Of a stretch of DNA of 64,000 nucleotides, positions 22,335 to 42,702 are shown one piece after another; the first letter of the stretch is position 1; each line of letters begins with the position of its first letter. The notes under the pieces are model-generated. The model worked only from the letters and a program-made list of their open reading frames with translations. It searched no databases and was not told the DNA's origin. A program made the position numbers and the translations under genes. Source of the stretch: a bacterium (GTDB taxonomy: Bacteria > Myxococcota_A > Bradymonadia > UBA7976 > UBA1532); the NCBI GenBank assembly GCA_030426085.1, contig JAUHYW010000022.1, positions 1 through 64,000 of the forward strand, given 5' to 3'.

Positions 22335-22612
22335 GCGAGCCGCCGAGCGGAAGGAGGCCGGGCCCGCGAGGGGCCCGGGTCGGAGCGAGGAGGAGGGCTT
22401 TGCCCGACGACGCTGCGCAGATCCCGTCCGCAGGACGGCCGGGTGATCGCCGTCGATGGGCACCCGCGGAGGCAGCGGCGCTGCCGGAGCACGCGAGCCG
22501 CGAGGCGAGCCGCCGAGCGGAAGGAGGCCGGGCCCGCGAGGGGCCCGGGTCGGAGCGAGGAGGAGGGCTTTGCCCGACGACGCTGCGCAGATCCCGTCCG
22601 AAGGACGGCCGG
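22335..22612. repeat. Two 108-bp direct repeats with conserved hairpins
   Basis: Copies at 22335-22442 and 22505-22612 (170 bases apart) match at 107 of 108 positions. Each contains an 8-bp hairpin CCGGGCCC-GCGAG-GGGCCCGG (22358-22378; 22528-22548) and a second hairpin CCGTCC-NNN-GGACGG (22424-22438; 22594-22608). The only difference between copies (C 22431, A 22601) falls in the loop of the second hairpin. The block fills most of the gap before priA. Frames through it are open but show no protein-like features. Confidence 0.85.
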
Positions 22613-22614
22613 AT

Positions 22615-22647
22615 GAGCACGGCAAAGTGAACAACGAGCACGGCAAA

Positions 22648-22677
<30 letters not shown>
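22615..22677 (+). repeat. Three tandem 21-bp repeats around the priA start
   Basis: Units starting GAGCACGGCAAAGTGAAC lie at 22615-22635, 22636-22656 and 22657-22677; the third is diverged at its end. The first two each carry an in-frame GTG (22627 and 22648) that can serve as a priA start. They begin two bases after the second 108-bp repeat. Confidence 0.85.
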
Positions 22678-31179: not shown

Positions 31180-31187
31180 CGCCCCCG

Positions 31188-31495
31188 CGGCAGCCCGCCC
31201 TCCCAGCACAGCGGATCCATGATGAACGGGCGCCCGCCGTTGTCGTTGAGCCGCAGCGTCAGCCCGTCGCCCCGCACCGTGCCCCGCCCGCCCGCTCGGT
31301 GCGGGTCGAGGCGCACGCGTCGTAGCGCCAGCACGCGGCCTCGCCGACGGAGCGGCCCTCGTCGTCGACGCCGGCCTCGACGGCCCCCATGAAGACGCCC
31401 CGGTGGTCGAGCCAGGACCACCTGGCGAGCAGGTCGCGCTCGGGCCGCGCCCGCCCGGCCTGGAGAACGCGACCCGCGGTGTCGGGCCGCGCCGG
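31188..31495 (-). pseudogene. Decayed, collinear second copy of the lipoprotein-toxin cassette
   Basis: Four short blocks match the intact cassette in the same order. They are 31188-31277 to 32308-32397 (nuclease gene, 3' part), 31283-31349 to 33679-33745 (nuclease gene, 5' part), 31345-31444 to 34042-34141 (SitB-like gene, 3' part) and 31441-31495 to 34792-34846 (tandem array). Within blocks few bases differ; between blocks 1.3 kb, 0.3 kb and 0.65 kb are deleted, and short shared ends (such as GACGG) mark two joints. No reading frame spans it. It is best explained as a tandem duplicate that collapsed by deletions. Confidence 0.85.
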
Positions 31496-31539: not shown

Positions 31540-32187
31540 TCAGGGGGCCCGAGGCGGATCGAAGGGCTGCCGGGCGCCGTGTCCGGCGGCCGCAGAGAGC
31601 GCCCGGGCCCGGACCTCACCCGGGTCGAGGCCCCAGCGGCGCAGGAGGTCGTGCACCATGTCCCGGTCGTAGCGCGAGCCCCGCACCTTCCAGTCGGCGA
31701 CGAGCGCAGGGAAGCCGGGCGGGGCGTCCGCCAGGCCTTCGAAGGCGTACGGCGGGTTCTGGATACCGAAGCTGGCCAGCGCGGCCAGGGCCCACTCCAG
31801 GGTGTTGCCGGAGTTGGGCAGGCCGCCTTGAAGCGCGAGCGGGTAGCCTTGCATCGCGCCATCATCGAGCCCAGGTGGATAGCTGCCCTCGGCCTCGAAG
31901 TGTCGGGCCGCCTCGATGAGCAGGAGATTGAACCGCGCGACGAAGATCTGGCCCTCATGGCCCCACAGCCCATAGCCCAGCTCGGGCGCGTCGGGGACGC
32001 GCACCGCGAGTGGCTGCCGCTCGAGCCGCGCGGACAGCCGCCGGATCTGCTCCCCTTCGGCGCCGACGGGGTCGATCGGGCAGATGATGCCGACGTAGCT
32101 CATGTCGGGCATGGGCATCTGTCGCTCGGCCAGCGGGCCGCGGTAGGGCATCGACAGGGCGATGAGCATCGCGACCCACTCCAGCAC
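31540..32187 (-). CDS. Candidate immunity protein (SitI-like position)
   Basis: This 215-aa protein begins at a GTG directly after the nuclease gene stop (TGA-GTG), with GGGAG 7 bases upstream; ATGs at codons 7 and 13 are alternatives. It lacks a signal peptide and looks soluble, with a mixed alpha/beta pattern (GEQIRRLSARLERQP; HEGQIFVARFNLLLIEAARHFE; GLPNSGNTLEWALAALASFG). No family recognised. Its place, last in a lipoprotein/lipoprotein-nuclease operon on the same strand, is what is expected for an immunity protein protecting sister cells. Function is inferred from position only. Confidence 0.55.
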   Translation of the reverse strand: MLEWVAMLIALSMPYRGPLAERQMPMPDMSYVGIICPIDPVGAEGEQIRRLSARLERQPLAVRVPDAPELGYGLWGHEGQIFVARFNLLLIEAARHFEAEGSYPPGLDDGAMQGYPLALQGGLPNSGNTLEWALAALASFGIQNPPYAFEGLADAPPGFPALVADWKVRGSRYDRDMVHDLLRRWGLDPGEVRARALSAAAGHGARQPFDPPRAP

Positions 32188-33966
32188 TCACTCGCTCCCG
32201 TTGCAATTGTCGTAGAAGGCGCCGACGCAGCTCCAGGTCGGGCTGACGCCCTCGGGCGCGATCTCGCCCGGCGCGAAGCAGGCGAACGCGGTCTGGGCGA
32301 CGGTCAGCGGCAGCCCGTCCTCCCAGCACAAGGGATCCATGATGAACGGGCGCCCGCCGTTGTCGTTGAGCCGCAGCGTCAGCCCGTCGCCCTGCACCTT
32401 GGCGAAGCCCTCGGCCAGCATCAGCGCCGTCCACCCGGGGGTGCCGGCGCAGAAGTTGTAGATCACCGAGTAGCGGGGCCCGGCGCCGGCCCGGCCGGCG
32501 ATCACCTTGTTGAGGTAGTCCTCGAGCTGGGTCCCGAAGGCCATCCCCCGGTACCAGTACCACGCCGACTGCCGCCTCCAGACCGTCTGGCTGTAGCACT
32601 TGACCTCGCCCAGCACGATGTGGTTCGAGCCGGTGAGGCGATAGTCGGGGTAGCGGATGCGCCCGGCGGGCTGCAGCATCACCCGGGCCCGCTCGTGGTC
32701 GAGGCCCGGCGGCAGGGCCCACTGCAAAGCCTCGGTGCGAAAGAACGGCCGGCGCATGAGCAGGTTGGGGTGTTTCTTGCACTGGACGTCGCCCCCATGC
32801 TTCAGCAGCAGCCGGCGACAGACGTGGTCCTCGTACTGGTGCCCCCGCTTCGCGGCGCGCGCCGCCTGCGCCTGACAGATCTCGCCCGGCGGGCACAGCG
32901 GCTCGGCGCCCTGCAGCTCGGCCAGCGAGTCCACGTGCACGTACTCGATCTCCGACTCTTCGTACAGCGCCTGCCCGTCGGGCAGATCGCCGAGCACCGC
33001 CTCCTCGAGCCAGGCGTTGATCGAGGGGAAGGGCTCGCACGACCGCGCCTCGTCGCCCGGGGCGCAGACCCACCGCCCGGGGCGGCCGCCCATCTCGGGG
33101 GCGGTCTCCGGATCGTGACAGTACCGCTCGGCCAGCGGCGCGTCGTCATCGGGCAGCGGGTCGACCTGCTCGCAGTCGCACAGGTCGTCGAGCCCGTCCT
33201 CGTCTTCGTCGGGGCAGCTCCAGGTGTTGGCCCGGGCGAAGATCTCCGCGTGGCAGGTGATGAGGTCGTACGCCCAGCCCCCGGTGTCGAAGCGCCAGTC
33301 CATGTCGGGGCGGACCTCCAGCTCGATGGTCGGGTTGGGGCCGGCGCCGACCCGCTCGATCCGGAAGCCGGCCCATCGAAAGCAGCTCAGCCACTGCTCG
33401 ACGAGGCCGGGGCCGACGAGGTCGAGGTGCGGGGCGCCAGCGTGGGGCAGCAGGCGCATGGGCAGGGCGAAGCCGGGATCGCCGCCGGGCATGAACGGGA
33501 TCACCTCGGCGGTGGACAAGCTGCCGTCGCAGACGCGGCAGGGCGTCGCGTCGGTGGTCTCGACGCGCAGGTCCCAGGCCGCGTAGGGCGGAAACGCCAG
33601 GCCGGTGTCGTCGCGGGCGACCGGCGCGGCGTAGCGCTCCATCAGCCCGTCGCCGTCCATGTCGAGGTTCGGCTGTGGCCCGCCCGCCAGCTCGGTGCGG
33701 GTCGAGGCGCACTCGTCGTAGCGCCAGCACGCGGCCTCGCCGACGTAGCGCAGCCCGATCTCGCCCGCCTCCTGAAGGTCGATCGACCACTCGCCGATGT
33801 ATCCGTTGAGGTCGGCGCCGCTCAGCGGGCCGACGGGGGTCGGGCCGGCGTCGGCGAGGGCGGGCAGCCCGTCGAGCGGGGGCGCCGGACAGCCGGCGAG
33901 CGCTAAGACGAGCGGCGCCAGGAGCAGCGCGCGAGGCAGCCCCGCCGGATCACCCGCCGCAGACAT
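32188..33966 (-). CDS. Lipoprotein with C-terminal PD-(D/E)XK nuclease domain (SitA-like toxin candidate)
   Basis: This 592-aa protein starts with a lipoprotein signal (LLLAPLVLALAGC, Cys26). The middle (about 60-370) is Cys-rich with acidic loops (MDGDGLME, DEDEDGLDDLC) of the calcium-binding kind. From residue 376 a restriction-endonuclease-like fold is readable: helix YEDHVCRRLLL, Asp441 in RYPDYRL, Glu454 and Lys456 in LGEVKCYSQ, and Gln480 in GTQLEDYLNKV. This is the pattern of Tox-REase toxin domains. Gene order lipoprotein, toxin lipoprotein, small soluble protein matches Myxococcus SitB-SitA-SitI. It overlaps the upstream gene by 17 bases. Nuclease activity and outer-membrane-exchange delivery are inferred. 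Confidence 0.75.
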   Translation of the reverse strand: MSAAGDPAGLPRALLLAPLVLALAGCPAPPLDGLPALADAGPTPVGPLSGADLNGYIGEWSIDLQEAGEIGLRYVGEAACWRYDECASTRTELAGGPQPNLDMDGDGLMERYAAPVARDDTGLAFPPYAAWDLRVETTDATPCRVCDGSLSTAEVIPFMPGGDPGFALPMRLLPHAGAPHLDLVGPGLVEQWLSCFRWAGFRIERVGAGPNPTIELEVRPDMDWRFDTGGWAYDLITCHAEIFARANTWSCPDEDEDGLDDLCDCEQVDPLPDDDAPLAERYCHDPETAPEMGGRPGRWVCAPGDEARSCEPFPSINAWLEEAVLGDLPDGQALYEESEIEYVHVDSLAELQGAEPLCPPGEICQAQAARAAKRGHQYEDHVCRRLLLKHGGDVQCKKHPNLLMRRPFFRTEALQWALPPGLDHERARVMLQPAGRIRYPDYRLTGSNHIVLGEVKCYSQTVWRRQSAWYWYRGMAFGTQLEDYLNKVIAGRAGAGPRYSVIYNFCAGTPGWTALMLAEGFAKVQGDGLTLRLNDNGGRPFIMDPLCWEDGLPLTVAQTAFACFAPGEIAPEGVSPTWSCVGAFYDNCNGSE

Positions 33967-34576
33967 CGACCGCGACCAGATCGTGGACCATGGCCTCGGC
34001 CTCGGACGGCGAGAGGGCGGACCCTGCGCCGGGCAGCGACCAGACGGAGCGGCCCTCGGCGTCGACGCCGGCCTCGATGGCCCCCAGGAATACGACCCGG
34101 TGGTCCAGCCAGGACCACTTGGCGAGCAGGTCGCGCTCGGGCGCGTAGAATCGGATCTGCCAGTCCTCGGGCGGCTCGGCGCGGTGGAAGACCCGGTTGC
34201 GGCAGCGGAACCAGGCGTCGACGAGGGACGCATAGAGCGCGTCGGTCGGGACCGCGCGGATCTGGATTCGCGCGACGGGCGCCGTTCGACTCTGCTCTCC
34301 GGTCGTCAGCTCGGCCCGGTAGGCCGAGGGGTCCTCGTCGACGCCGAGGCCACGCCACGCGACGGCGCCGCTCGCGCTCCCGCCCGGCGCGCATCCGGCG
34401 CGGATGCAGTCGAGGTCGCCGGGCGTCGGACCGGACGCTCCACCGCAGTGGGTGGCGCACGCCGGTGCCGTCGCCGGCAGGGGCTCGGGGATGGTCGACT
34501 CGGCGTCACACCCGAGCGCGCCGAGCGCGATGGCCGCGCACGCTACGAATGGAAGGCTGGGCGCCATGTCTGTCAT
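33950..34576 (-). CDS. Small lipoprotein, first gene of the cassette (SitB-like position)
   Basis: This 208-aa lipoprotein has a signal (PFVACAAIALGALGC, Cys23) and several cysteines early in the mature part. The C-terminal half (YASLVDAWFRCRNRVFHRAEPPEDW..., then DLLAKWSWLDHRVVFLGAIEAG) matches no family I know. Its position ahead of a lipoprotein toxin, with a 17-base overlap, is that of sitB, whose product aids SitA function in Myxococcus xanthus. Start ATG 34576 has GGGAG 8 bases upstream; ATG 34567 is the alternative. A promoter lies at 34606-34634. Part of this gene is duplicated in the decayed copy at 31345-31444. Confidence 0.65.
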   Translation of the reverse strand: MTDMAPSLPFVACAAIALGALGCDAESTIPEPLPATAPACATHCGGASGPTPGDLDCIRAGCAPGGSASGAVAWRGLGVDEDPSAYRAELTTGEQSRTAPVARIQIRAVPTDALYASLVDAWFRCRNRVFHRAEPPEDWQIRFYAPERDLLAKWSWLDHRVVFLGAIEAGVDAEGRSVWSLPGAGSALSPSEAEAMVHDLVAVDVCGG

Positions 34577-34605
34577 GCCACGCGCTCCCGAAGGGTGGGA
34601 TGGGG

Positions 34606-34634
34606 ACGCTAGCAAGCGGGGGGTGGCCGGGCAA
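34606..34634 (-). promoter_or_regulatory. Putative promoter of the sitBAI-like cassette
   Basis: On the minus strand TTGCCC (34634-34629) and TAGCGT (34611-34606) are 17 bases apart, with the expected start about 23 bases before the ATG at 34576. Confidence 0.5.
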
Positions 34635-34744
34635 GGGATGCGCTCGCTGAGCCCGGCTCGAGGTGTCAGCCCGAGGGCCCCCTTCGATCAGGTGACAGTG
34701 CAGCAGCGCATCACGCTGAACCGCGACATCCACCGGGCCCACAG

Positions 34745-35766
34745 CCCCGAGTCCGACCCCCGCCCGGCCTGGAGAACGCGACCCGCGGTGTCGGGCCGCG
34801 CCCGCCCGGCCTGGAGAACGCGACCCGCGGCGTCGGGCCGCGCCCGCCCGGCCTGGAGAACGCGGCCCGCGGTGTCGGGCGACACCGCCCTGGTCCGGAG
34901 AGCGCGGGGCAGGGGTGTCCGGCGACACCTCACTGGCCGGAAAATCCAGCGCAGAGGTGTCCGGCCACACCTCACCGGCCCGGAGAACGCGGGGTCGGGG
35001 TGTCCGGCGACACCTCACCGGCCTGGAGAACGCGGGGTCGGGGTGTCCGGCGACACCTCACCCCCTCGATGGATCGGAGGCGGGGGTGTCCGGCCACACC
35101 CCACCGGCCTGGAGAACGCGGCCCGCGGTGTCGGGCGAGACCGCCCTGGCCCGGAGAGCGCGGGGCAGGGGTCTCCGGCGACACCTCACCGGCCCGGAGA
35201 ACCCGGGGCGGGGGTGTCCGGCCACACCCCACCGGCCCGGAGAATCCGGCGTCGCGGTGTCCGGCGACCCCTCACCGGCCCGGAGAATACGGGGCAGGGG
35301 TGTCCGGCGACACCTCACCGGTCCGGAGAATACGGGGCAGGGGTGTCCGGCGACACCTCACCGGCCCGAAGGACCCGGCGTCGCGGTATCCGGCCGCGCC
35401 TCGGGCGGCGTCCTCACCGGTCGGGGGGGTCTCCGAGCGGGCCTCCCGGGTCGGAGAGTCCGGGGCGGGGGTGTCCGGCGGCCCCTCACCGGCCCGAAGA
35501 GTCCGGCGTCGCGGTATCCGGCCGCGCCCCGGGCGGCGCCCTCATCGGTCGGGGGGTCTCCGAGCGGGCCTCCCGGGCTGGAGAGTCCAGGGCGGGGGTG
35601 TCCGGCGGCCCCTCACCGGCCCGAAGAGTCCGGCGTCGCGGTGTCCGGCCGCGCCCCGGGCGGCGCCCTCACCGGTCGGGGGGTCTCCGAGCGGGCCTCC
35701 CGGGCTGGAGAGTCCGGGGCGGGGGTGTCCCGCCTGGCCCCGGGCGGCGTCCGCCCGGCCGTCACC
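34745..35766. repeat. Non-coding tandem array of 42-43-bp hairpin units
   Basis: About 24 contiguous units start at 34787, 34829, 34871, 34914, 34956, 34999, 35042, 35085, 35127, 35170, 35213, 35256, 35299, 35342, 35385, 35428, 35470, 35513, 35555, 35597, 35640, 35682 and 35724, with a partial unit before. The anchor is GGTGTCCGGCGACACC, a perfect hairpin (GGTGTC-CGGC-GACACC) in units 34914, 34999, 35042, 35299 and 35342, with variants elsewhere. Unit length is not a multiple of three, so long frames through it are not coding. From 35342 on, three-unit blocks of 127-128 bases repeat. Confidence 0.9.
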
Positions 35767-35880: not shown

Positions 35881-35903
35881 GCCCGGCCCCGGGCTTCCTT
35901 TTT
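35881..35903 (+). terminator. Terminator between the tandem array and the giant TPR gene
   Basis: Stem GCCCG / CGGGC (35881-35885, 35890-35894) is followed by TTCCTTTTT. On the plus strand it would stop any transcript coming out of the repeat array. Confidence 0.6.
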
Positions 35904-35928
35904 CACCGTCGACCGCGCATGGTATATG
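35902..35928 (+). promoter_or_regulatory. Putative promoter of the giant TPR gene
   Basis: TATATG (35923-35928) follows TTCACC (35902-35907) after 15 bases, about 80 bases before the ATG at 36010. It lies directly after a terminator-like hairpin. Confidence 0.35.
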
Positions 35929-36009
35929 CTGCCGAGCCGAGCCCGGGGGCAGGAGCACGGACGTCCGCCACCGCTCACCTCCGGCCCGACCACGACGCGA
36001 TCGGATCGC

Positions 36010-39000
36010 ATGCGCACACCCCGCGATACGATGACCCTCCGGCTCGGCGAGCCCACCCGGATCCCCTTGCCCGACGAGGGCTTCTGGCGGCGCCACTGCG
36101 CGCTGCTCGAGCGCCGGGCGGCGGGCATGCGCCCCTCGATCGAGCAGGCCCGGCTGCACGGGCAGCGGGCGTACGTGCTCACCGAGATGCTCGACGACCC
36201 CCAGGCGGCCGAGACGGCGTGGAAGGCGGCGCTGGTGGCCCGCCCCGGCGACCTGCCGGCGCTGCTCGCCCTGCGCGATCGGGCGCTGTCCACCGGGGAT
36301 CGCTCCCTGGCCGAGACCCTGACCGACGTGCACCTGCCGGCGCTCGCCGCGGCCGACGGGGCCGACCGGCGGGACGTCGCCGAGGTGGCCGGGGTCTTCG
36401 GGCTGGTGTGGCTCTTCCGCTGGATCGACGCCGGGCGGGCGGCCCGGGCGCTGGCCCACGTCGAGGCGGCCGGCGACCCCCTGGGGCTGGCGGCCCGGCT
36501 GTTCCACCTGTGCCTCGACGGCCCCGGGCGGGTGGGCCGCTGGCGGGCGCAGGTCGAGCGGGCCGAGGGCGTCGATCGGGCCGCGGCGCTGGCCGAGCTG
36601 GGGCGGCACCTCGTCGACGACCCCGAGGCCGCCGCCGAGGGCTGGCGGGGCATCGCCGAGGCCGCCGAGCAGGATCCGATCGCCGGCTGGTACCGGGTCG
36701 AGCAGGCCCTGATGACCGACGAGCCGAGCGCGCTCGCCCGGGCCCTGGAGACGCTCGCCGGCCACTGCCCCGGCGTGGGGGCGCCGATCCTGCGGTTCCT
36801 GGCGGGCGAGATCTGGGAGCTGCGCCTGGGGGACGGCGAGAAGGCCGACGCGCTCTACGCCGCGGTGACCGGCGGCGGGCTGCGGGCGGCGATCGCGCTC
36901 AAGCAGATCGTGGCCGACGCCCGCCAGTTCTTCGACGACCCCCTGGGCATGGCGGCGACGCTCACCGAGCAGGCCGACCACATCGGCGACGCCCGGCTGG
37001 AGGCGGTGCTGCACCTGCGGGCGGCTCAGCTCGCCGCCCGGGCCAACGACATGCCCCGAGCCCGCACCGCCGCCGCGGCCGCCTTCGAGCGCTGGCCGGA
37101 GGACGACCGGGCCCGGCACCTGCTCGAGCGCATCCTGTGGCGGGCCGCCGAGTGGCGCGGGCTGCGCGACCTGCTGGTGCGCGACGCGGGCACCGAGATG
37201 GGGCGCCTGCTGCGGGCGGCGCTGCTCGAGTTCGCGCTCGACCAGCCGGCCAGCGCGCTCGGCGCCCTGGGGCCGGGCACCGGCGAGGCCCCCGACCTGC
37301 TGCACCTGCGGGCCCGCCAGCGGCTCTCGCGGCACATGGTGGCCGGGGACGACCCCCGAGAGGCCGAGGCCCGGGTGCGGGCGTGGCAGTACGAGGCCAA
37401 CCTGCTCGACGCCGGCGACCGCCGGGCCGAGCTGTACCTGCGCATCGCCCGGTTCTATCTGGCCCGCACCGCCCAGCACGAGAAGGCGCTGACCTACCTG
37501 TTCTGGGTGCTCGACCGCGACCCGCAGCACCTCACCGCGCTGCGCATCATCGAGCACTGCTGCCGGGAGACCGCCCGCCGGGGGCCGCTGGTGCAGGCCC
37601 TCGAGCAGACCGTCGAGCTGCTCGACCGCCCCGCCGACCGCTTCCCCCTGCGCCGGGAGCTGGCCGAGATCCGGGACGAGCTGGGGGCCCCGACCGACGC
37701 CCTCGTCGAGCTGTACCGGGCGGCGCTGGCCGAGGAGCCCACCGACGCCGCCACCCAGGCCGACCTCGAGCGGCTGTACCGCGAGGCGGGGCGGGACGAC
37801 GACCTCAAGGCGCTCTACGAAGAGATGCTGCGCACCGCCGCGGGCCCCGAGGCCCGGGCCTCGGTCGCGATCCGGTTCGGGCCGCTGCTCGTCGAGCGCT
37901 TCGACGACGCGGTCGCCGCGCTGCGGCTCTACGACCGGGTGATGCCCGACGCCCCCGAGGGCCCGCTGCGGGCCCGGCTCGAGATGCTGCTGACCGACGC
38001 CGCCGCCGCCGGCGGGCTCTCGGGCAGCCTGCCCGCGCTCGACCCCCAGGCGCTGGCCGCGTTCGACAAGTCCTCGGTCGACTTCGACTTCGGCGAGGAC
38101 GACATCGACGAGCTGCTGACCGTCGTCTCCGACCCGATGGGCGAGGCGTCGGAGATCGAGCCGCCCCCGCTGCCCCCGCTGCTGCCGATGGCGCCGACCG
38201 AGGTCGACAGCAGCATCCGCAGCCCGCTGCCCACCGACGAGGTGCCCGGCCCGTTCGGCGACCCGCTCGACAGCGGCCCGATCAGCCGCAGCGGCCTGCT
38301 CGACTCGGGGCGGGCCGCCGAGCCCCCGCCGGTCACCCTGACCACCGGCGAGATCGAGCTGCTCGACTTCGAGGTCGACGAGGGCGACGCCGAGCTGGAG
38401 GGCTCGGTCGAGCTGGCCCCCCACGAGGTCGCCGAGATGGGCCTGCCCCCGGCGCCCATCGCCGACCGCACGACGGGCTTTCTGGGCGAGGAGCGGTCCG
38501 GTGACAGCCGGCGCGACCCGGGGCGGGCGGTCATCGCCCGCAAGCTGCGCCGCAGCCGGGGCGAGGCCCCCAGCGACGACTTCCCCGACTTCGGCGAGCC
38601 GAGCGTCGCCGAGGCGGTGGCGATGTACCGCGGGGCGGGGGACTTCGACACCCGCCTGCGGGCCGCCGCCGAGCTGGCCCGGCGCTACGCGTCGGCCGGG
38701 CGCCCGATCGAGGCCATCCGGGCGTGGCGCACGGTGCTCGGCTTCCGGGCGGGCGACGCCGACGCGGTGCGGGCGCTGGAGCAGCTCTACCGGGCCACCG
38801 AGGACTGGAAGGGGCTGGTCGACATCCTCGGCGGCGAGGCGACCCGCACCGGCGACCGGGCCCGGCGGCAGGGGCTGCTGCTCGAGGTCGCCCGGCTCGA
38901 GTGGCGGGCCCTGGGCGACGCCGGGGCCGCGGTGGGACACTTCCTCGAGGCGCTCGACCTGGGCCCGGTCGAGCGGGACACCATCGCCGAGCTGGCCGGC

Positions 39001-42000
39001 GCGGTGCGGGCGGTCAAGCGCTGGCCGGCCTACGTCGAGGCGCTGGCCCGGGGCGGGCTGGACGACCCCAAGCGCATGGCCCCCGAGGCGGCGATCGACC
39101 TCGGGCGGGTGCACCTCTACGAGCTTCAGGATCCGGCCCGGGCGGTGCCCTACCTCGTCGCGGCGGCCCGGTCGCTGCCCGAGCGGGTCGACATCGCCGC
39201 CGATCTGGCCGAGGCCCGGGCCGGGCTGGGCGAGGTCGACCGGGCGGTGGCGCTCTTGACCCGGGCCATCGAGGCCGCCGGCGACCTGGGCCCCGAGGCG
39301 CGCAACGTGCTGCGGCTGCGGCTGGCCCGGCTGTACGAGGAGCACGCCGACGACGGGGGCGCCGCCCGGGCCATCTACCGCGACGCGCTCGCCGAGGGCC
39401 TGCGCGATCCGGCGGTGCTCGACCGCATCGACCACCTCGCGACCGCCGCCGGCGACTGGGACACCCTGGCCCGGGTGCTGCGGCGCAACCTCGAGATCAC
39501 CGACGACCCCGAAGAGATCCGCCCGGTCGCCATCCGGCTGGGGCAGCTCCTGCTCAAGCGGCTCGACCGGCCCCGGGAGGCGGCGACGGCCTTCGTCGAG
39601 GCCTACGTGCTCGAGCCGGGCGACGAGGTCATCTTCCGGCTGGTCGAGGGCATCCTGCGCAAGCACCCCGACCCGGCGCTGCAAGCCCGGCTCTACGCCG
39701 CGTGGCTGGCCGACGGCGAGCGCAGCCTCAAAGAGCGGCTGACGATGTCCCTGCGGCTGGTGGCGGCCCACGAGGCCGAGGGCCGGCTGGACGCGGCGGC
39801 CGAGGTGCTCGAGGGGCTGCGGGCCCGCATGCCCCGGGACGGCGAGGTGCTCGCCGCGCTGGAGCGGGTCTACCAGAAGGCCGGCCGGTGGGCCGAGCTG
39901 GTGGCGCTGTACCGCGAGGCGCTCGACGCCACCGCCGACCCCCAGGTGCGCGGGCGGCAGCTCCGGCGGCTGGCCCGGGCCCACGAGGTCGGCCTGCGCG
40001 ACCTGCCGGCGGCCACCGAGGTCTACCGGGCGCTCATCGAAGAGCAGCCCGACGACGGCGCCGCGCTCAAGGCGCTCGCCCGGCTGCTCGAGGCCCAGAA
40101 GCGGTGGCACGAGCTGCTCGACGTCAGCGCCCGCGAGCTGGCGCTGACCGACAAGCCCCGGCAGAAGGCGTTCATCCACTTCCGCATGGGCAGCCTGCAC
40201 GAGTCGCAGCTCGGCGAGCACGACGCCGCCGCGGCCGAGTACCGCCGGGCGCTGGACCTCGACCCCCGCTGCTTCCCCGCGCTGCACGGGCTGCGCGAGC
40301 TGGCGGCCAACGCCGGCGACTGGCCCACCGTCGTCGACTACCTCGGCCGCGAGCTGGCGCTGTGGGACGAGCCCAAGGAGCAGGCGGCGGTCCTGGCCCG
40401 CATCGGCGAGATCCACGAGAACCGGATGGGGGACACCGCCGAGGCCGACGCCCACTACGCCAGGGCGCTGGACGTCAACCCCGGCTGCATCCCCGCCGCC
40501 CGGGCCCTGGCTCGCCGGGCGTGGCAGGCCGGCGACTGGGAGGCCGCCGCGCCGCACCTGCAAGTGCTGACCAACCAGAACCTCGACAAGCTGCCCCGCT
40601 CGACGTCGAGCCGGCTGTTCTATCGGCGGGGCATCGTCGCCCGGCACCTCGGCCGCAAGCTCGAGGCCATCGAGAGCCTCAAGCTGGCGCTGGAGTTCGA
40701 CGGGGACAACGCCGAGGCGCTGCACGCGCTGGTCGAGACCTACGCCGGCGAGGGGGCCGACGACGAGGGGCTCTCGGCGCTGCTCGGCCAGCTCGGCGAG
40801 GCCCGGGCGGGGCACGTCGAGGCCGGGCGGACCGAAGAGGTGGCCCGCATCGACGTGCTCTCGGGGCTGGCCGCCGAGCACCAGCTCCGGCTCGACGACG
40901 CCGAGGCGGCCTATCGCCGCGCGCTCGAGCAGCGCCCCGACGCGCCCGAGATCGTGCGCCCGCTGGTCGAGCTGCACCTCAAGCGCCGCCGCTGGACCGA
41001 GGCCACCGGCGCGCTGCGGGCCTTCGCCGACCGGTTCCTCGACGCGGCGATGGACGACGAGACCGCCCGCGCGATCTGGACCGACGCGACCTTCTGGGAG
41101 GGCGAGATCTGGTCCGACATGGCGGTGGATCCGGCCCGGGCCATCGCGTGCTACGCGGCGGTGATGGCGGTCGACCCCGACAACCGCGAGGCCCGCTACC
41201 GCACCGCGCAGTGCCACTACCTGATGGGGGTCTTCGACGAGGCGGCGACCATCGTCGACGGGCTGCTGGCCCGGCCCGACCTCTCCGCCGCCGAGCGGGC
41301 CCGCTACATGTTCTACCGGGGGCGCATCGAGCAGGTCGGCCTGCACGACGAGGACCGGGCCCGGGCCCGCTACACCGAGGCCCTGGCCACCGACCCCCAC
41401 TGCGCCCCGGCCCTCATCGCGCTGGGCCGCTCGCTGCTCGACGCCGGCGAGGGCGACGCGGTCGTCGACCTGCTGCGGGAGTATCAGGCCCGGGTCGAGG
41501 CCCCCGACGACGGCGACCCGGACGCGGTGGCGCTCAAGACGTTCGCCGCCGGGGTCTGGCATCGCCACGGGCAGAGCGACGTCGCGCTGCGGCTGCTGTC
41601 CCCGCTGGCCCGGGGGGTGACCGCCGGCGCCCGGGACGCCCGCTTCGCGCTGGCCCGGGTGCACGAGTCCCGGGGGGCGTTCGACGCCGCGGCGGCCCAG
41701 CTCGAGCGCACCCTGAGCGACGACGTGTGCGACGTCGCCGCGCTGCGGGCCCTCGCCGAGCTGCGCACCCGCCAGGGAGACGACGAGCGGGCGCTGTGGG
41801 CGCTGTCGGTGCTCGAGCTCTACGGCGCGCTGACCCCCGACGAGCGGGCCGCCTGGGGCGCCCTGCGCGACCGCAACCGCAAGCAGCGCGACCGGGGGGG
41901 GCGGGCCGCGCCCGACCCGGTGCTCGAGGCCGCGCTGCTGCACCCCTCGTTCAAGAGCCCGCTGGTCTCGCTGATGGCGCTGTGCGCCGACGACCGCCCC

Positions 42001-42702
42001 ATCCGGCCGCCGCCGACGCTGCGCCGGGCCGAGCGGGTCACCGGCCAGCGGCACACCTTCACCCTCGAACTCGAGGCGGTGCAGACCCTGCTCGGCCACC
42101 GGGACTTCGACCTGTACTTCATCGGCGACCACCCCGAGCTGGTGGCGCTGTGGCCCGGCGACCCCCCGCTGATGGTGCTCGGGGCGCCCGCGCTCGGCGA
42201 CCGGTGCACCACCGCCGAGCGGCGGTTCCTCGTCGGGCGGGCGGCGTTCTACGGGCGGACCGGGCTCACCCGGCTGCACGACGCCGGCCCCGAGCAGGCG
42301 CTGGACCGCATCGCCCGGGTCACCGGCCTCATCCAGCGGCGGGACCGCCTCGACCGGCGGGCCGAGCCGCTGTTCGCCGGCCTCGACGACCGGACCATCG
42401 ACACCGTCGCCGAGCTGCTCGCCCGGATCGGCGAGCAGCCCCTGCCCCCGATGTACACCGGGGAGCAGGCCCTGGCCGGGGTCACCTGCACCGCCGACCG
42501 GGCCGGCCTGCTCGCCAGCGGCTCGCTGCGGGCGGCGGTCGAGATGCTCACCCGCCACGCGGGGGTCGGCGAGACCGTCGAGCGGGGGGACGACCTCGGC
42601 TGGGCGGTGCGCAGCGGGTCGCGGTTGCGCGATCTGGTCAAGTATGCTCTCTCGGATGCGTACGTCCGGCTCCGCGCGGCGGCCGGGCTCGCGATCCAGT
42701 AG
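36010..42702 (+). CDS. Giant TPR-repeat protein (about 2,230 aa)
   Basis: This very large cytoplasmic protein is built almost entirely of TPR-like helix pairs, e.g. ATEVYRALIEEQPDDGAALKALARLLEAQ, ELALTDKPRQKAFIHFRMG and AEYRRALDLDPRCFPALHGL. The first solenoid (about 1-680) and the second (about 870-2,000) are split by an acidic, Pro-rich, low-complexity linker (about 690-850). The C-terminal ~200 residues look globular. No signal peptide or membrane helix is present. The frame is open upstream through the repeat array, but that is GC artefact; ATG 36010 or 36031 is the real start. Likely a scaffold; the STAS-PAS-PP2C genes follow 36 bases downstream. Confidence 0.85.
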   Translation: MRTPRDTMTLRLGEPTRIPLPDEGFWRRHCALLERRAAGMRPSIEQARLHGQRAYVLTEMLDDPQAAETAWKAALVARPGDLPALLALRDRALSTGDRSLAETLTDVHLPALAAADGADRRDVAEVAGVFGLVWLFRWIDAGRAARALAHVEAAGDPLGLAARLFHLCLDGPGRVGRWRAQVERAEGVDRAAALAELGRHLVDDPEAAAEGWRGIAEAAEQDPIAGWYRVEQALMTDEPSALARALETLAGHCPGVGAPILRFLAGEIWELRLGDGEKADALYAAVTGGGLRAAIALKQIVADARQFFDDPLGMAATLTEQADHIGDARLEAVLHLRAAQLAARANDMPRARTAAAAAFERWPEDDRARHLLERILWRAAEWRGLRDLLVRDAGTEMGRLLRAALLEFALDQPASALGALGPGTGEAPDLLHLRARQRLSRHMVAGDDPREAEARVRAWQYEANLLDAGDRRAELYLRIARFYLARTAQHEKALTYLFWVLDRDPQHLTALRIIEHCCRETARRGPLVQALEQTVELLDRPADRFPLRRELAEIRDELGAPTDALVELYRAALAEEPTDAATQADLERLYREAGRDDDLKALYEEMLRTAAGPEARASVAIRFGPLLVERFDDAVAALRLYDRVMPDAPEGPLRARLEMLLTDAAAAGGLSGSLPALDPQALAAFDKSSVDFDFGEDDIDELLTVVSDPMGEASEIEPPPLPPLLPMAPTEVDSSIRSPLPTDEVPGPFGDPLDSGPISRSGLLDSGRAAEPPPVTLTTGEIELLDFEVDEGDAELEGSVELAPHEVAEMGLPPAPIADRTTGFLGEERSGDSRRDPGRAVIARKLRRSRGEAPSDDFPDFGEPSVAEAVAMYRGAGDFDTRLRAAAELARRYASAGRPIEAIRAWRTVLGFRAGDADAVRALEQLYRATEDWKGLVDILGGEATRTGDRARRQGLLLEVARLEWRALGDAGAAVGHFLEALDLGPVERDTIAELAGAVRAVKRWPAYVEALARGGLDDPKRMAPEAAIDLGRVHLYELQDPARAVPYLVAAARSLPERVDIAADLAEARAGLGEVDRAVALLTRAIEAAGDLGPEARNVLRLRLARLYEEHADDGGAARAIYRDALAEGLRDPAVLDRIDHLATAAGDWDTLARVLRRNLEITDDPEEIRPVAIRLGQLLLKRLDRPREAATAFVEAYVLEPGDEVIFRLVEGILRKHPDPALQARLYAAWLADGERSLKERLTMSLRLVAAHEAEGRLDAAAEVLEGLRARMPRDGEVLAALERVYQKAGRWAELVALYREALDATADPQVRGRQLRRLARAHEVGLRDLPAATEVYRALIEEQPDDGAALKALARLLEAQKRWHELLDVSARELALTDKPRQKAFIHFRMGSLHESQLGEHDAAAAEYRRALDLDPRCFPALHGLRELAANAGDWPTVVDYLGRELALWDEPKEQAAVLARIGEIHENRMGDTAEADAHYARALDVNPGCIPAARALARRAWQAGDWEAAAPHLQVLTNQNLDKLPRSTSSRLFYRRGIVARHLGRKLEAIESLKLALEFDGDNAEALHALVETYAGEGADDEGLSALLGQLGEARAGHVEAGRTEEVARIDVLSGLAAEHQLRLDDAEAAYRRALEQRPDAPEIVRPLVELHLKRRRWTEATGALRAFADRFLDAAMDDETARAIWTDATFWEGEIWSDMAVDPARAIACYAAVMAVDPDNREARYRTAQCHYLMGVFDEAATIVDGLLARPDLSAAERARYMFYRGRIEQVGLHDEDRARARYTEALATDPHCAPALIALGRSLLDAGEGDAVVDLLREYQARVEAPDDGDPDAVALKTFAAGVWHRHGQSDVALRLLSPLARGVTAGARDARFALARVHESRGAFDAAAAQLERTLSDDVCDVAALRALAELRTRQGDDERALWALSVLELYGALTPDERAAWGALRDRNRKQRDRGGRAAPDPVLEAALLHPSFKSPLVSLMALCADDRPIRPPPTLRRAERVTGQRHTFTLELEAVQTLLGHRDFDLYFIGDHPELVALWPGDPPLMVLGAPALGDRCTTAERRFLVGRAAFYGRTGLTRLHDAGPEQALDRIARVTGLIQRRDRLDRRAEPLFAGLDDRTIDTVAELLARIGEQPLPPMYTGEQALAGVTCTADRAGLLASGSLRAAVEMLTRHAGVGETVERGDDLGWAVRSGSRLRDLVKYALSDAYVRLRAAAGLAIQ

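What the first reader, a model, noticed from the sequence alone, without database searches (positions are those of the whole stretch)
34745..35766. One-kilobase array of 42-43-bp hairpin units next to the toxin cassette
About 24 units are set at nearly constant 42-43-bp steps, with GGTGTC-CGGC-GACACC as a perfect hairpin in at least five units. The unit size is not coding. Array fragments are also in the decayed cassette copy, so array and cassette moved together. It could be a recombination hotspot, a protein-binding array, or a structured RNA.
Basis: partly seen in the sequence, partly recalled or inferred. Interest (0 to 1): 0.75.

Follow-up and report, generated by a model that had tools for sequence, protein, structure and literature searches.

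The report
Fixed-step intergenic repeats of changing sequence
The one-kilobase array is real, but it is one of many repeat arrays between genes in this bacterium that have unrelated sequences and yet nearly all step by 42-44 bases (about four turns of DNA), which suggests that the spacing, not the letters, is what is kept.

Summary
The array at 34745-35766 is real: about 24 head-to-tail units with steps of only 42 or 43 bp, five of them carrying the exact hairpin GGTGTCCGGCGACACC. It is intergenic and not coding. The exact hairpin occurs nowhere else in the 10.1-Mb genome. The array is not a private partner of a toxin cassette. In an unbiased 1.46-Mb sample of the same genome, 11 of 15 intergenic tandem arrays have a 42-44-bp unit or a multiple of it. 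Their sequences are mostly unrelated and their neighbours are unrelated genes. A same-genus genome shows the same step; a same-class genome shows 41-42 bp in about half of its arrays. Step length holds even between units only 53-67% alike. In the sister species the orthologous gap has neither the array nor the neighbouring gene. A structured RNA is not supported: no covariation, no Rfam match. No guide-RNA (Nop) or REP transposase gene was found. The closest architecture is the F-plasmid centromere sopC (43-bp units, 16-bp inverted repeat), but the genome has only one clear ParB. Best reading: intergenic satellites grown by unequal exchange, with unit length pinned near four DNA turns, perhaps by a protein bound in phase. 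Period lock is shown; cause and function are inferred.

The parts
34745..35766 (+). whole array, about 24 units of 42-43 bp; unit about GGTGTCCGGCGACACCTCACCGGCCCGGAGAACGCGGGGCGGG
34745..35427 (+). monomer part of the array; five perfect GGTGTC-CGGC-GACACC hairpins
35296..35730 (+). higher-order repeat part: 127-128-bp trimers of the unit
   Evidence: (family D3, two copies 96% alike)
31440..31493 (+). 54-bp array fragment, 98% identical, in the decayed copy
31187..31493 (.). decayed direct duplicate of 32307-34844: four collinear pieces left after deletions, two of which end in 9-10-bp overlaps
33950..34567 (-). 205-aa gene left of the array, no family match
32188..33966 (-).
36031..42702 (+). 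2223-aa TPR-repeat protein gene right of the array; N-terminal 300 aa 76% identical in the sister species
35894..36130 (+). leader and start of the TPR gene conserved in the sister species G001 (pieces 35894-35945 and 35987-36130, 81-82% identical), where no array precedes it
35881..35904 (+). terminator-like hairpin with T run between array and TPR gene; consensus match only

Best explanation
This is one member of a class of intergenic satellite arrays in this genome and its relatives. Each array grows and is partly homogenised by unequal exchange or slippage between units, which yields higher-order repeats of 2, 3 or 7 units. What is common to the class is the unit length (42-43 bp in this genus, 41-42 bp in a related genus), close to four turns of the DNA helix, not the sequence. 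My preferred reason: each unit shows a GC-rich inverted repeat or half-site, and in one sub-family the motif GKAGAAYGCG, on the same face of the helix, so that a DNA-binding protein can bind many units cooperatively, in the manner of the F-plasmid centromere sopC. Shown: array, period lock across unrelated sequences, intergenic placement, higher-order repeats, absence at the sister locus. Inferred: unequal exchange, the helical explanation, a bound protein, any function.
For: Unbiased sample of the genome: 11 of 15 intergenic arrays have a 42-44-bp unit or a multiple. Pooled intergenic autocorrelation, without any TRF threshold, peaks at 129, 42, 171, 43, 84, 86, 128, 170, 85 (this pool includes arrays found through similarity to this one). 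The best local lag among 25-64 is mainly 42 or 43 in nearly all arrays of G000 and G001, and these stay the commonest lags between neighbours only 53-67% alike; it is exactly 41 in the two G047 arrays tested. Same genus G001: six of nine intergenic arrays at 42-43 bp; G047: 8 of 17 at 41-42 bp. Four arrays (C67, C20, C36, C79) share a backbone of a GG..CC inverted repeat followed at a fixed distance by GKAGAACGCG-like sequence. Higher-order periods 85, 127-128 and 299 bp. In L074 an inverted segment lies inside the array and keeps the 42-43 phase. Folding is more stable than in unit-permuted controls in about half of the arrays, on both strands.
Against: No binding protein identified. Palindromes differ between arrays, and about half of the arrays show no excess of self-complementarity, so one protein for all is unlikely. 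Only one clear ParB in the genome. The step ranges from 41 to 44 bp, not exactly four turns. A duplication mechanism that prefers about 42 bp would give the same period without any function. The orientation of arrays relative to genes is not consistent.
Confidence: 0.4

Rival explanations
1. Functionless minisatellites. A duplication process that favours about 42-bp copies (for example hairpin-assisted slippage or fill-in of staggered breaks) seeds arrays from any intergenic sequence; unequal exchange then keeps the length.
For: Unit sequences are mostly unrelated between arrays; neighbours are unrelated; the array is absent from the sister locus; higher-order repeats are typical of satellite turnover. 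Borg elements show independently arising, rapidly evolving tandem repeats (PMC9879509).
Against: Very diverged units still keep 42-43-bp steps, where neutral indels should have blurred them; one sub-family keeps GKAGAAYGCG in register while the rest changes.
Confidence: 0.38
2. Structured or guide-like RNA array: a transcript is cut into hairpin units.
For: One hairpin per unit; a terminator-like site on the + strand after the array; more G-T than A-C mismatches in the stem on the + strand (16 against 5).
Against: No Rfam match; covariation within shuffle range (124 of 500 shuffles reach the observed pairing); no Nop domain in the genome; units lack the short, locus-specific spacers of TIGR arrays; no common partner gene.
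Confidence: 0.1
3. Mobile or recombination platform that moves together with the neighbouring cassette.
For: A fragment lies in the decayed tandem copy; the sister species lacks both the array and the neighbouring gene at this place.
Against: Same-step arrays stand beside housekeeping genes; the decayed copy is explained by one local duplication plus deletions; no match in plasmids or phages.
Confidence: 0.07

Closest known systems
F-plasmid centromere sopC / parS_F (twelve 43-bp tandem repeats, each with a 16-bp inverted repeat bound by SopB/ParB_F; PMC9178275, PMC6238139)
   Same: unit length, direct repeats, about one 16-bp GC-rich inverted repeat per unit, noncoding
   Different: many arrays per chromosome with different palindromes; no parA/parB gene among the flanking genes examined; one clear ParB in the whole genome
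Bacterial minisatellites / VNTR loci
   Same: intergenic, head-to-tail, higher-order repeats, absent from a sister species
   Different: arrays of unrelated sequence share one unit length
Tandem repeats of archaeal Borg elements (PMC9879509)
   Same: many independently formed arrays of different sequence, partly intergenic, often ending contigs
   Different: Borg units are perfect copies and occur in genes too; here units are strongly diverged and the step is fixed
TIGR stem-loop arrays (PMC12045711)
   Same: tandem palindromic units
   Different: no Nop-domain protein, no 8-12-nt locus-specific spacers with box C/D motifs seen
REP / RAYT elements
   Same: GTAG or GGAG near a hairpin element (resemblance from memory)
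   Different: no Y1 transposase (PF01797) in the genome; tandem, not dispersed

Membership tests
sopC-type centromere | tandem about 43-bp units each with an inverted repeat | tested here: met
   a good inverted repeat in only about half of the units
sopC-type centromere | cognate ParA/ParB genes linked to the array | tested here: not met
   flanking genes show none; the single clear ParB lies on contig C5, not beside this array
sopC-type centromere | specific binding by the partition protein | not testable with these tools
   needs DNA-binding assays
minisatellite / VNTR | head-to-tail noncoding units of 10-100 bp | tested here: met
minisatellite / VNTR | copy number differs between strains | tested here: inconclusive
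   absent at the sister-species locus; no strain data
TIGR-Tas | Nop-domain Tas protein | tested here: not met
   PF01798 finds nothing in the genome; a divergent Tas could be missed
REP/RAYT | Y1 (PF01797) transposase | tested here: not met
CRISPR array | constant repeat with unrelated spacers | tested here: not met
   the whole unit is repeated, there is no spacer class
structured RNA family | match to a described RNA family | tested here: not met
   (gathering thresholds)
structured RNA family | compensatory changes in stems | tested here: not met
   no measure clearly exceeds shuffles

The most novel reading that the evidence does not exclude
A class-wide chromosomal system of phase-locked satellites: dozens of intergenic arrays per genome whose letters drift freely while the unit stays near four helical turns, acting as nucleoprotein platforms (centromere-like, domain boundary or silencer) read by geometry plus short half-sites.
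Probability: 0.25. Interest if true: 0.85.

Novelty: new variant of a known kind. Interest (0 to 1): 0.55.

Why it matters
If a genome keeps the period of its intergenic repeats but not their sequence, then repeat length itself is under selection or is set by an unknown duplication mechanism. Either answer is testable and would be new for bacterial minisatellites. If a protein reads the phase, it would be a chromosomal counterpart of a plasmid centromere present in many copies. It also warns that such arrays break short-read assemblies: three of them lie at contig ends here.

Tried and rejected
TIGR-Tas (no Nop domain). RAYT/REP (no Y1 transposase). ParB-family centromeres for all arrays (one clear ParB). 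Rfam families. Hairpin covariation as proof of RNA (within shuffles). Plasmid and phage similarity: none. An AAA protein as common neighbour of arrays in G000 and G001: not homologous beyond the P-loop. My first autocorrelation run was spoiled by masked N runs and was repeated without them.

Full report
What is there. Between a leftward gene whose 5' end is at 34567 and a rightward 2223-aa TPR gene starting near 36031 lies a 1.46-kb gap. The array fills 34745-35766. Using only the degenerate anchor GG[TC][GAC]TC, 23 units follow each other with steps 42 42 43 42 43 43 43 42 43 43 43 43 43 43 43 42 43 42 42 43 42 42. Five units hold the exact 16-base hairpin and 14 are within two mismatches, against 0.26 expected in the window. 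A second element, GGAGAACGCG or a variant, sits at a fixed distance (about 26 bp) after the start of most hairpins. The right part is a 127-bp trimer repeat. The alternation of 42 and 43 rules out a conserved reading frame across the array.

The decayed copy. Window 31187-31493 is collinear with 32307-32398, 33675-33750, 34043-34145 and 34791-34844. It is one direct duplicate of gene plus array edge that has lost three internal segments, two of the joints lying in 9-10-bp overlaps. It shows local duplication, not mobility of an array-cassette unit.

The array is not alone. The exact hairpin is private to this array in the genome. But similarity and motif searches led to other arrays with the same step, and an unbiased sample of the genome (1.46 Mb after masking and after removal of loci chosen for their arrays) holds 15 intergenic arrays, of which 11 have a unit of 42-44 bp or a multiple. 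Pooled intergenic sequence of the full G000 sample, which includes the arrays found by similarity, has its strongest self-match lags at 129, 42, 171, 43, 84, 86, 128, 170 and 85. In G001, same genus, six of nine intergenic arrays have 42-43-bp units; in G047, same class, 8 of 17 have 41-42 bp. The G001 stretch was chosen because it held array hits, so its share is not unbiased. G047 is a single contig of 8,047,206 bp, which I take from memory to be Persicimonas caeni (Bradymonadales); that name is an inference. If right, the window comes from the same class (Bradymonadia in GTDB terms).

Length kept, letters not. When the best local lag is sought freely between 25 and 64, 42 and 43 win at most positions of nearly every array in G000 and G001 (L256 prefers 44 and 43), and they remain the commonest lags for neighbours only 53-67% alike. 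Unit sequences of different arrays are mostly unrelated: GGTGTCCGGCGACACC, GGGTCCCGGACCC, CCACCTCCCGGAGGTGG, GAGGGCCCTCCCGAGGGCCCTC. One array (L074) contains an inverted segment that stays in phase. One sub-family, in C67, C36, C20, C79, C66, C85 and two arrays of G001, keeps GKAGAAYGCG in register. Outside the genus, two copies of a narrower form of that motif at this spacing are no commoner than a reversed control.

Context. Flanking genes include AIPR and AAA proteins, a SIR2-CHAT-TPR protein, a TIR-NACHT protein, kinases, a CagX-like protein, but also peptide chain release factor, glycerate kinase, a bile-acid symporter family protein and many unknowns. Arrays lie between divergent, convergent and co-directional genes. 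Some conflict-system neighbours are striking, but I had no background frequency to test enrichment. At the orthologous place in G001 the TPR gene leader is conserved (81-82% over 144 and 52 bp), no array is found, and the upstream gene is an unrelated reading frame.

RNA or DNA. Rfam gives nothing. Over 30 distinct unit hairpins from four arrays, pairing is 79.4% against 77.8% in shuffles, so there is no covariation signal. There is a mild strand bias of mismatches (16 G-T against 5 A-C on the + strand) and a terminator-like site after the array; these keep a transcript possible but do not support a conserved RNA fold. Against unit-permuted controls about half of the arrays fold better than expected, mostly on both strands alike, which fits inverted repeats in DNA at least as well as RNA.

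Explanation. Two facts need a cause: independent arrays of unrelated sequence share one period, and diverged units keep it. Either duplication is biased to about 42 bp, or units that leave phase are selected against. The second is favoured slightly by the length stability of very diverged units and by the sub-family motif kept in register. The known system with this geometry is sopC, where 43-bp units place a 16-bp ParB site every four turns or so (PMC9178275, PMC6238139). Membership fails on the linked partition genes, and one clear ParB in the genome cannot account for many different palindromes; hence 'works like', not 'is'.

Limits. Gene calls are from a home-made codon-usage caller. The G000 sample covers about 15% of the genome; masked N runs were excluded from the autocorrelation. 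Unit numbers in an assembly that breaks at such arrays are lower bounds. The literature search found no description of such a class, but the library holds open papers only.

Noticed in passing
window 31540-33966 (-): The supposed toxin (592 aa) and partner (215 aa) match no Pfam family and nothing convincing in NCBIfam; a partial duplicate of the gene lies directly downstream at 31187-31440.
   Followed up: partly
window 22335-22669: Two 170-bp direct copies followed by a 21-bp unit GAGCACGGCAAAGTGAACAAC (2.6 copies) in front of a large gene that reads like primosomal helicase PriA (not tested).
   Followed up: no
L074:11924-12990 (G000:C79, about 87-88 kb): About 1.1-kb array of 42-43-bp units with an inverted segment that keeps the phase, directly beside a SIR2-CHAT-TPR protein gene.
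   Followed up: partly
G000 contigs C36 (end), C66 (start), C85 (end): Contigs end inside 42-43-bp arrays: these satellites break the assembly, so copy numbers are lower bounds.
   Followed up: no
L031:3245-7069 (G000:C79): AIPR protein and AAA_21 ATPase genes diverge from a 0.5-kb array of the same sub-family; looks like a defence pair.
   Followed up: no
L256:13324-13638 (G000:C11): Array with a 44-bp step, the outlier among this genome's arrays.
   Followed up: no
L135, L173 (Lujinxingia vulgaris), L134 (Minicystis rosea), L200 and L229 (Sorangium cellulosum): Tandem arrays with 41- or 43-bp steps (171 = about 4 x 43 in L229) in other Myxococcota, found through a motif pattern; periods not divisible by 3 suggest noncoding. 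Not surveyed without bias.
   Followed up: partly
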